Assembly: GCF_011008565.1 (NCBI RefSeq)
Contig: NZ_JAAIWK010000023.1
Location: forward strand, 1-60,477
DNA from: Heyndrickxia ginsengihumi
Lineage (GTDB): Bacteria > Bacillota > Bacilli > Bacillales > Bacillaceae_C
Direction of reading: 5' to 3'
DNA: 60,477 nucleotides
A program made the position numbers and the translations under genes. Under the pieces are notes generated by a model. It was not told where the DNA came from, ran no database searches, and saw only the letters and a program-made list of their open reading frames with translations. Positions 15,323-18,536 of the stretch are shown one piece after another; within the stretch, counting starts at the first letter, position 1, and the number at the start of each line of letters is the position of its first letter.

Positions 15323-15439
<117 letters not shown>

Positions 15440-15595
15440 TTATTACCTCCTTAATATTACGGAGTGCATGATTAGTTATCATAAAAATAACACTAATTTC
15501 TACACGTCAAGGTTGATAATCAAGCAATACTAATAAAATGATCGCAAACACGAATTAACAACTAGCAATAAGTAGAACGAGCGTTAAACATTTAA

Positions 15596-15814
15596 TTATT
15601 TAAAACGATATGTGATTCTTCCACGAGTTAAATCATACGGAGAAAGCTCAACTGTTACTTTATCACCTGGTAAAATACGAATGAAATTCATTCTAATTTT
15701 TCCAGATACATGTGCAAGAACAGTATGACCATTCTCTAATTCTACCTTAAACATTGCGTTTGGCAAAGTTTCACTAACTGTACCTTCAACCTCGATAACA
15801 TCATCTTTCGCCAT
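15596..15814 (-). CDS. infA: Translation initiation factor IF-1
   Basis: A 72-residue OB-fold (S1-like) protein that occupies the A site during initiation with IF-2 and IF-3. Blocks are [39 protein letters not shown] and the C-terminal [12 protein letters not shown]. Standard length. GAAGGGAG lies upstream. It follows a 717-bp stretch containing only the map relic; either read-through from adk or a new promoter within the relic must express it. Confidence 0.99.
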
Positions 15815-15964
15815 CGAACTTTTCTCCCTTCTTCTAACATTTGGGACCTTAATAAAATACCTCTTCCGTAAACCTCAAAAACTATACGGCTCGCCCAAAT
15901 TCCTATTTTTATGACTGTTAGACGCTTAACGAATAATGAACAACACTAGATACATGTAAAGCGG

Positions 15965-16527
15965 ATGATCGGCTCTCACAATTCTATCGTTGCTCCCATT
16001 GGACATCTCAAAAAGACATATGCATACATCATCATACTAGATCATGCTTCAGGCAATTGGCGAGGGCCTATAGGTGGTCCATCACGAGGTATATTAGTTC
16101 TTCATGTCAGTCTTGACCAATCCCATGTCCGGCATACCCGCGAACGATAGAAAGCCACTTACATGAAAAAAACTGAATTGCATGAGAGACGTTCGATTGA
16201 CGTTAACTAGCCAATCACTGTTAAAACAATAACAGACTAGTAATTCCTCATCTATTTTCAACAGAATATTTAGAAGAAGAATATTATATAAATTAATCCT
16301 CTGGTTTTCACCAATTAAATATTCTGTGATCCTTCAATGGTGAAAATCGTCACGATAACCATTATAACCTTTTCAAGCCGGAAATGCATCATACTCATAA
16401 AGAAAATTTTCAGCAATTCCAACAAAAAATGGAATTTACTCAGACTATGCTGCTTTCCAAAAAAATGAAGAGTGTTTAAAGCATGTAAATTGCTGCTACT
16501 CTCATGAATTCATCAATGCTTTCTAAC
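15965..16527 (-). pseudogene. map: Decayed methionine aminopeptidase gene (map)
   Basis: Between adk and infA, where B. subtilis has map, the minus strand retains map segments in several frames. Recognisable pieces, in the right order: IDEFMRVAA (about 16520), IAENFLYEYDAFPA-stop-KGYNGYR (16417-16352, family IAEKFIREHDAxPSFKGYNGFR), NVSHAIQ (16193-16173) continuing in frame through WLSIVRGYAGHGIGQD-stop-HEE (family GFSVVRDFVGHGVGQDLHED), and DGPPIGPR (16083 downward). In-frame TGA codons occur at 16375-16373 and 16109-16107, and at least two frame changes separate the blocks. This copy cannot make an active enzyme; since the activity is essential, another methionine aminopeptidase must exist elsewhere. 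Confidence 0.9.
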
Positions 16528-16531
16528 GACC

Positions 16532-18536
<2,005 letters not shown>

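What the first reader, a model, noticed from the sequence alone, without database searches (positions are those of the whole stretch)
15840..16531. map is a decayed relic inside the essential ribosomal superoperon
Seen: between adk and infA the minus strand keeps ordered fragments of methionine aminopeptidase (IAENFLYEYDAFPA-stop-KGYNGYR; NVSHAIQ; WLSIVRGYAGHGIGQD-stop-HEE; DGPPIGPR) broken by at least two TGA stops and frame changes. Known: in B. subtilis this gene is map, one of two methionine aminopeptidase genes. Inference: the lineage switched fully to a second, distant copy and this one is rotting in place. Catching an essential-function gene mid-decay inside the most conserved operon is unusual and could date the switch. 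Downstream infA, rpmJ, rpsM and rpoA now follow about 700 bp of untranslated RNA.
Basis: partly seen in the sequence, partly recalled or inferred. Interest (0 to 1): 0.75.

Follow-up and report, generated by a model that had tools for sequence, protein, structure and literature searches.

The report
Dead gene still controls its neighbour
A gene for an essential enzyme has died inside a bacterium's main ribosome operon, but the bits of it that survive appear to be kept because their RNA can fold onto and cover the start signal of the next gene, the translation factor IF1.

Summary
In detail: window 15815-16531 (minus strand) is a map relic (nhmmer E 4e-24 and 6e-8). "Mid-decay" does not: the loss is shared by all 5 genomes of the genus and is one of at least 14 losses among the loci sampled. 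Two other type I MAPs remain. What survives is not random debris. Three stretches of former map codons stay conserved in the genus's relics while the rest is scrambled, and two of them also show marked synonymous constraint in intact map genes. Block 4 (16202-16183) is complementary to the infA Shine-Dalgarno and start codon (-22.1 kcal/mol; none of 183 control windows is as good; best of all windows in 66 of 76 near loci). One pair co-varies inside the clade (29 intact representatives, no pairing filter: G-C 12, G-U 2, A-U 5, A-C 0, other 10; p 0.002) and not outside (p 0.42). Best reading: a long-range mRNA helix, born inside map's coding sequence, gates IF1 translation and outlived its gene. 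A TATAAT site may be an internal promoter. Block 5 and the signal are unexplained. No experiment was done.

The parts
16532..17179 (-). adk (adenylate kinase), upstream neighbour
   Evidence: 80-87% identical proteins in 80 named loci
15815..16531 (-). map relic, now the adk-infA spacer (717 nt)
   Evidence: no gene-length ORF; nhmmer E 4.3e-24 and 5.6e-8
16361..16390 (-). island 2: box GATGCA (16390-16385), 18 nt, TATAAT (16366-16361); promoter-like, former map codons about 50-60
   Evidence: TGCA-18 nt-TATAAT in 27 of 36 relic loci (7 of the 27 read by eye from the printed rows); no homologous segment detected in the other 9; synonymous excess inside and outside the clade; TATAAT at this Tyr-Asn in 23 of 25 versus 7 of 15 at a control Tyr-Asn. 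The upstream box is not a consensus -35 and the standard scan does not list the site
16173..16202 (-). block 4: anti-Shine-Dalgarno / anti-start sequence, former map codons about 138-147 (RLSNISHAIQ)
   Evidence: 17 bp with the infA start region, -22.1 kcal/mol, none of 183 control windows as good; synonymous constraint and covariation in the clade
16100..16139 (-). block 5, former map codons about 162-175; function unresolved
   Evidence: 35 of 40 columns identical in four species; synonymous excess 0.130 inside and 0.023 outside the clade, but not exceptional within the gene (43 of 231 windows reach it); no pairing partner found
15809..15828 (-). target of block 4: infA Shine-Dalgarno GGGAGA (15828-15823), GUUCGAU (15819-15813) and GGCG (15812-15809), covering the start codon 15814-15812
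   Evidence: duplex structure for L007; sequence
15596..15814 (-). infA (translation initiation factor IF1)
   Evidence: tblastn 97-100% identity in the rows shown

Best explanation
In one large clade of Bacillaceae the map coding sequence had come to carry a second message at the nucleic-acid level. About 20 nt (block 4) can base-pair with the Shine-Dalgarno and start codon of infA, the next essential gene, and so hide it. Where map is translated, ribosomes would open this helix and couple IF1 synthesis to map. On RNAs starting at the promoter-like site inside map, or where map is dead, block 4 is untranslated leader and gates infA translation. In the window's genus the enzyme function rests on two other MAP genes, the reading frame decayed, and selection kept block 4, block 5 and the promoter-like site. 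Shown: the relic, its conserved islands, synonymous constraint at island 2 and block 4, the complementarity, its strong bias to one clade, and one covarying pair. Inferred: that the helix forms in vivo and lowers IF1 translation, that TATAAT is a real start site, and that block 5 belongs to the same device.
For: Islands survive in frame-broken relics: 25 of 26 block-4 and 35 of 40 block-5 columns identical in four species, versus 99 of 458 outside the islands. Block distance is 81 nt in all 22 intact genes listed but 74-82 in 18 relics, 12 of them not in frame with 81 or shifted, so it is not held by coding (L086, 93 nt, has a degraded block 4). Block 4 synonymous excess, all 29 intact representatives inside the clade: 0.235 (1 of 237 windows reaches it); outside 0.054 (44 of 237). 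Conserved residues outside the islands score 0.057 against 0.189 inside; adk and secY have no comparable internal peak. Complementarity to the infA start: mean -18.8 versus -7.7 kcal/mol for other windows, best of all windows in 66 of 76 near loci; infA is the best start region in 33 of 34 loci. Covariation without any pairing filter: inside 12 G-C, 2 G-U, 5 A-U, 0 A-C, 10 other, p 0.0018; outside 2, 8, 10, 6, 33 other, p 0.42; on the tree two G-C to A-U changes, one A-U to G-C, one stepwise through G-U, and one A-U to A-C at L141, whose site is a chance match in a fully deleted map. Strong pairing: 58 of 61 intact and 28 of 42 relic loci inside; 10 of 66 and 0 of 10 outside.
Against: Only one of 13 tested pairs covaries; the Shine-Dalgarno pairs hardly vary, and 17 of 61 intact clade members form no standard pair at the covarying place. 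RNAalifold finds no common fold in 19 relic 4-5 regions, and in 49 joined sequences it prefers another register, block 4 with infA -1 to codon 8. In whole-leader folds the Shine-Dalgarno itself pairs with block 4 at 0.6 or more in 9 of 17 relics and at 0.24 or less in 8; shuffled block 4 reaches the real value in 0 to 15 of 40 trials in the nine relics tested. Own partners beat swapped ones by only 1 kcal/mol, Peribacillus ranking 13th of 14. Four of eight losses inside the clade did not keep the pairing; against 0 of 6 kept outside this gives p 0.07. Block 5 is unexplained and its constraint in intact genes is weak. The clade limits were drawn after seeing the pairing values.
Confidence: 0.58

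Rival explanations
1. Ordinary neutral pseudogene: the conserved pieces are just the most conserved MAP motifs, easiest to recognise, and have no function.
For: The islands overlap conserved MAP motifs (KGYNG, SNISHAIQ, GHGIGQDLHE). Several lineages lost map without trace.
Against: Conservation is relic against relic, with frame shifts between blocks and near-scrambled flanks. Island 2 and block 4 codons are constrained at synonymous sites in intact genes while other conserved residues are not.
Confidence: 0.1
2. The islands are DNA elements only, such as internal promoters or protein-binding sites for the infA operon; complementarity to infA is a by-product of a CUCC-like motif.
For: TATAAT with a box fixed 18 nt upstream in 27 of 36 relic loci; synonymous excess there inside and outside the clade. 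The B. subtilis rpoA unit is said to start upstream of infA (passages of PMC4495994). No common RNA fold of the 4-5 region in relics.
Against: In the window complementarity spans 17 bp, not only CUCC, it favours infA over other start regions, and one pair covaries with a leader base. Block 4 has one exact match in the genome, the next best with 2 mismatches.
Confidence: 0.19
3. The helix serves mRNA processing or stability (for instance a double-strand cut site between the spc and alpha parts) or simply sets a fixed low yield of IF1 relative to ribosomal proteins, with no switch.
For: A 17-bp duplex is predicted between sites about 370 nt apart in the window. A fixed stoichiometric need would explain constraint without a sensor (inference).
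Against: No direct evidence; the retained block 5 would remain unexplained.
Confidence: 0.13

Closest known systems
E. coli infC-rpmI-rplT (IF3-L35-L20) operon
   Same: A translation-factor/ribosomal-protein operon with a promoter inside the upstream coding region and a long-range mRNA structure used for translational control (passage of PMC10931766).
   Different: There the control acts on the ribosomal-protein genes through the repressor bL20 and the upstream gene is alive. Here the target is infA, the donor is map, no repressor is known, and the element persists after the donor gene died.
E. coli rplJ-rplL (L10-L7/L12) coupling (recalled, not read)
   Same: A downstream start region hidden by sequence within the upstream coding region.
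   Different: Different genes; here the coupling partner has become a pseudogene.
map/yflG pair of B. subtilis (PMC1266368: start of abstract in the listing and passages seen)
   Same: A second MAP gene exists elsewhere in the genome.
   Different: In B. subtilis map is intact and essential; here it is dead and two others remain.

Membership tests
Type I methionine aminopeptidase (Map) | Open reading frame of about 250 aa matching the family | tested here: not met
   Longest start-to-stop frame in the spacer 61 aa; stops and shifts; DNA homology only
Pseudogene (map relic) | Homology in order at the orthologous place with disabling lesions | tested here: met
Long-range translational-control mRNA structure of ribosomal-protein operons | Conserved complementarity to a downstream start region, better than to other start regions | tested here: met
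   in the window the second-best start region is nearly equal (-22.0)
Long-range translational-control mRNA structure of ribosomal-protein operons | Compensatory base changes | tested here: inconclusive
   One of 13 pairs covaries; kinship handled only by a parsimony count
Long-range translational-control mRNA structure of ribosomal-protein operons | Measured effect on translation, and a repressor or coupling ribosome | not testable with these tools
   needs reporters or probing
SigmaA promoter (island 2) | -10 TATAAT with a -35 hexamer near TTGACA at 16-18 nt | tested here: not met
   -10 perfect and spacing fixed at 18, but GATGCA matches TTGACA at 2 of 6 places by eye; not listed by the scan
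Known Rfam RNA families | Match to any family | tested here: not met
   No match at E up to 1 in 15400-17300

The most novel reading that the evidence does not exclude
A protein-coding gene in one of the most conserved bacterial operons doubled as a riboregulator: block 4 (cover) and block 5 (sensor or competitor) form a switch for IF1 that answers a signal such as IF1 itself, a ribosomal protein or map translation. In several lineages the enzyme gene died and only the switch and its promoter live on.
Probability: 0.25. Interest if true: 0.9.

Novelty: new variant of a known kind. Interest (0 to 1): 0.76.

Why it matters
It gives a natural experiment on what a gene's sequence is for besides its protein: after loss of the protein, what survives marks embedded regulatory sites. 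It proposes a control point for IF1, whose regulation in these bacteria I did not find described in the searches (open-access library only). It also warns that 'pseudogene' or 'intergenic' labels inside core operons may hide conserved control RNA.

Tried and rejected
Known RNA family: none. Local RNA fold of blocks 4-5: RNAalifold 0.0 kcal/mol on 19 relics; -16.9 with almost no covariation on four species of the genus; -5.5 on 22 intact genes. New small protein: the frames through blocks 4 and 5 differ between species. Dispersed motif: block 4 has one exact match in the genome. Block 5 pairing with block 4, adk, infA, rpmJ or rpsM: no convincing partner; the best, near infA +183 to +186, has z -4.1 to -4.5. 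A consensus-scoring promoter elsewhere in the relic (GTGAAA-17-TATAAT, 16311-16283) comes from a scan whose number of hits (4) equals the shuffled mean (4.3), and the aligned sisters lack that TATAAT. The R1 sequence model matched 298 of 299 genomes, but intact map genes match it too, so it was not used as evidence. A fourfold-site yardstick in adk failed through my own frame error (zero sites) and was not repeated. The Fisher inputs on loss fate were hand counts and are superseded.

Selections that matter: searches used representatives already filtered for strong pairing (26 of 29 inside-clade intact genes, or 46 of 49 joined sequences). One search repeats the constraint, covariation and partner-swap tests without that filter. 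The clade was drawn on the tree after seeing pairing values. Island limits were set partly from the same profile; one search repeats with relic-defined limits (9 of 249 rotations, 12 of 20000 permutations reach the value).

Samples and drops: one search counted 85 loci, three of which (L009, L010, L011) repeat L027, L033, L036; these and L128 were dropped from then on (179 loci: 163 with a block-4-like site by motif search, some of them chance matches where map is gone, and 16 without). 100 of the 150 genomes located were fetched; 2 of the 100 had no infA on the contig. The near sample was chosen by adk similarity. The shuffle control used 9 of the 17 relics.

Full report
1. What is there. The window holds secY-adk-[spacer]-infA-rpmJ-rpsM-rpsK-rpoA-rplQ on the minus strand (gene names other than the tested ones are recognised by eye). 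The 717-nt spacer 15815-16531 has no gene-length frame, but a DNA profile of intact map genes matches it in two ordered places (E 4.3e-24 and 5.6e-8). The genome belongs to the genus of Heyndrickxia coagulans: contig lengths identify G004 with NC_016023.1 (H. coagulans 36D1), G003 with an H. coagulans DSM 1 contig and G002 with an H. acidiproducens contig. No call named the window's own species.

2. Not mid-decay. All five genomes of the genus lack an intact map here. Among 85 loci near in adk (three of them repeats), 47 have intact map and 38 do not; of 98 order-wide loci with both genes, 80 are intact and 18 are not. On a tree of SecY, Adk and IF1 from 179 loci these fall into 14 separate all-relic groups, 8 inside and 6 outside the clade defined below, hence at least 14 losses if loss is irreversible. 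The window genome keeps two other type I MAPs, 259 and 247 aa, above the TIGR00500 cut-off. In the family listing the relic genomes G001, G004, G114 and G241 each show two intact M24 matches with open frames of 251-316 aa besides longer ones.

3. The remains are not random. Aligning the five relics of the genus gives islands of conservation in otherwise poorly alignable sequence. In four species block 4 has 25 of 26, block 5 has 35 of 40 and island 2 has 32 of 41 identical columns; outside all islands 99 of 458. Frame between the blocks is not kept: their distance is 81 nt in all 22 intact genes listed, but 74 to 82 in 18 relics (a nineteenth, L086, reads 93 because its block 4 is degraded). 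Other relics keep the two blocks as well: Peribacillus, L087 and L065, L072 and L076, and in worn form L089 and L073. The Niallia circulans group (L030, L038, L043, L066), L069 and the fully deleted lineages do not.

4. Constraint in living map genes. In 22 intact representatives, synonymous codon identity above codon-usage expectation peaks at codons 51-70, 141-155 and 166-180. Conserved residues inside these stretches score 0.189 (34 codons), outside 0.057 (115 codons); the highest windows of adk and secY are at their first codons, with internal windows at most 0.135 against 0.165-0.219 in map. With limits taken from the relics alone, 9 of 249 rotations and 12 of 20000 permutations reach the value. 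In 62 order-wide representatives the peak at island 2 remains (0.113 against a mean of 0.031); block 4 is lower at 0.07 and block 5 at 0.05.

5. Block 4 covers the infA start. In the window, 16202-16183 pairs with 15828-15809: six pairs with the Shine-Dalgarno GGGAGA, seven with GUUCGAU and four with GGCG, enclosing the start codon; -22.1 kcal/mol, none of 183 control windows as good. Near loci: mean -18.8 against -7.7, best of all windows in 66 of 76, top 5% in 72 of 76; order-wide sample: top 5% in 32 of 87. infA is the best of the recognised start regions in 33 of 34 loci. In the window it is first of 59, with a near-equal second at -22.0, and 23 of 30218 windows on both strands are at least as good, at least nine of them the block's own complement. 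Averaged over 36 loci the best target of block 4 is the infA Shine-Dalgarno (-12.6); rpsM follows at -10.2.

6. Clade bias. The pairing clade (103 loci, local support 0.95, drawn after seeing the pairing) contains the window's genus. Strong pairing (top 2% of windows): 58 of 61 intact and 28 of 42 relic loci inside; 10 of 66 and 0 of 10 outside. Synonymous excess with all representatives, inside (29) against outside (59): block 4 0.235 against 0.054 (windows reaching it: 1 of 237 and 44 of 237); island 2 0.173 against 0.093 (3 of 227 in both); block 5 0.130 against 0.023 (43 of 231 and 120 of 231). So block 4 is constrained where it pairs; island 2 is constrained everywhere sampled; block 5 rises in the clade but does not stand out within the gene. 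The values (0.263, 0.187, 0.169) came from the 26 pairing representatives only.

7. Covariation. The third base of the Ser codon in block 4 and base -2 before the infA start were tabulated without a pairing filter. Inside, 29 intact representatives: G-C 12, G-U 2, A-U 5, A-C 0, other 10 (p 0.0018). Outside, 59: 2, 8, 10, 6, other 33 (p 0.42). All clade loci with a site: 42, 3, 27, 1, other 21; the one A-C is L141, where map is gone and the site is a chance match. Parsimony gives two G-C to A-U changes, one A-U to G-C and one stepwise G-C, G-U, A-U path (L090/L082). 17 of 61 intact clade members form no standard pair at this place. With pairing-filtered representatives the contrast is stronger (25, 2, 10, 0; p 2e-7) but biased. 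Of 13 pairs tested this is the only one that beats shuffling; six Shine-Dalgarno pairs hardly vary and are uninformative.

8. Island 2 as promoter. TATAAT stands 18 nt after a TGCA box in 27 of 36 relic loci (in 7 of them the script printed an extra nearer TATAAT and I read the 18-nt one by eye); no homologous segment was detected in the other nine. In intact genes TATAAT encodes Tyr-Asn there in 23 of 25 clade representatives against 7 of 15 at a control Tyr-Asn (outside 33 of 44 against 17 of 33). The upstream box is not a consensus -35, and the scan lists other sites at chance frequency. Several clean-loss lineages have other TATAAT sites ahead of infA, read by eye. PMC4495994 (passages) states that the B. 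subtilis unit containing rpoA starts upstream of infA.

9. Results against. No common RNAalifold structure for blocks 4-5 of relics. On 49 joined sequences it prefers block 4 with infA -1 to codon 8, so the register is not settled. In whole-leader folding some part of the infA start region pairs with block 4 at 0.88 or more in 15 of 17 relics and 0.28 in two, but the Shine-Dalgarno itself does so at 0.6 or more in only 9 of 17. Shuffled block 4 reaches the real value in 0 to 15 of 40 trials (nine relics). Own partners are better than swapped ones by about 1 kcal/mol (unfiltered: -19.05 against -18.06, 13 of 20000 swaps; at the level of 14 groups 41 of 20000, Peribacillus 13th of 14). Retention after loss is 4 of 8 inside against 0 of 6 outside, p 0.07.

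10. Reading. It works like the E. coli IF3 operon, where a promoter lies in the upstream coding region and a long-range mRNA structure controls downstream translation (PMC10931766, passages). Whether it is a member of that kind needs an expression test. No paper describing this appeared in the listings; the library holds open-access papers only, so older work on this operon may be missing.

Noticed in passing
L163, L164, L140, L158, L167, L159, L192, L211 (adk-infA spacer): Lineages that deleted map completely carry other TATAAT-type sites ahead of (ybzG-)infA, and several changed the infA Shine-Dalgarno (AAAGGAGA or GGAGGGAAC). Read by eye.
   Followed up: partly
L026 spacer, just after the intact map stop: A copy-like AAGGTTATAATGGTTATTGTG, resembling the island 2 motif, follows the intact map gene.
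   Followed up: no
L146, L147, L085: Loci inside the clade with intact map but without strong block 4 pairing; possibly a secondary loss.
   Followed up: no
window 15882-15815: The stretch before infA is also conserved in the genus (45 of 68 columns in four species) and has a GGTATT-like box; possibly a second promoter next to infA that would make RNAs lacking block 4.
   Followed up: no
window 16515-16499: A conserved TGAATTCATGAGAG right after the adk stop in the five aligned relics of the genus, with no match to the map profile; function unknown.
   Followed up: no
L018, L024, L035: Records titled Pseudomonas sp. ISL-84 and Paenibacillus sp. group with Cytobacillus or Peribacillus loci in the tree; the titles look wrong.
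   Followed up: no
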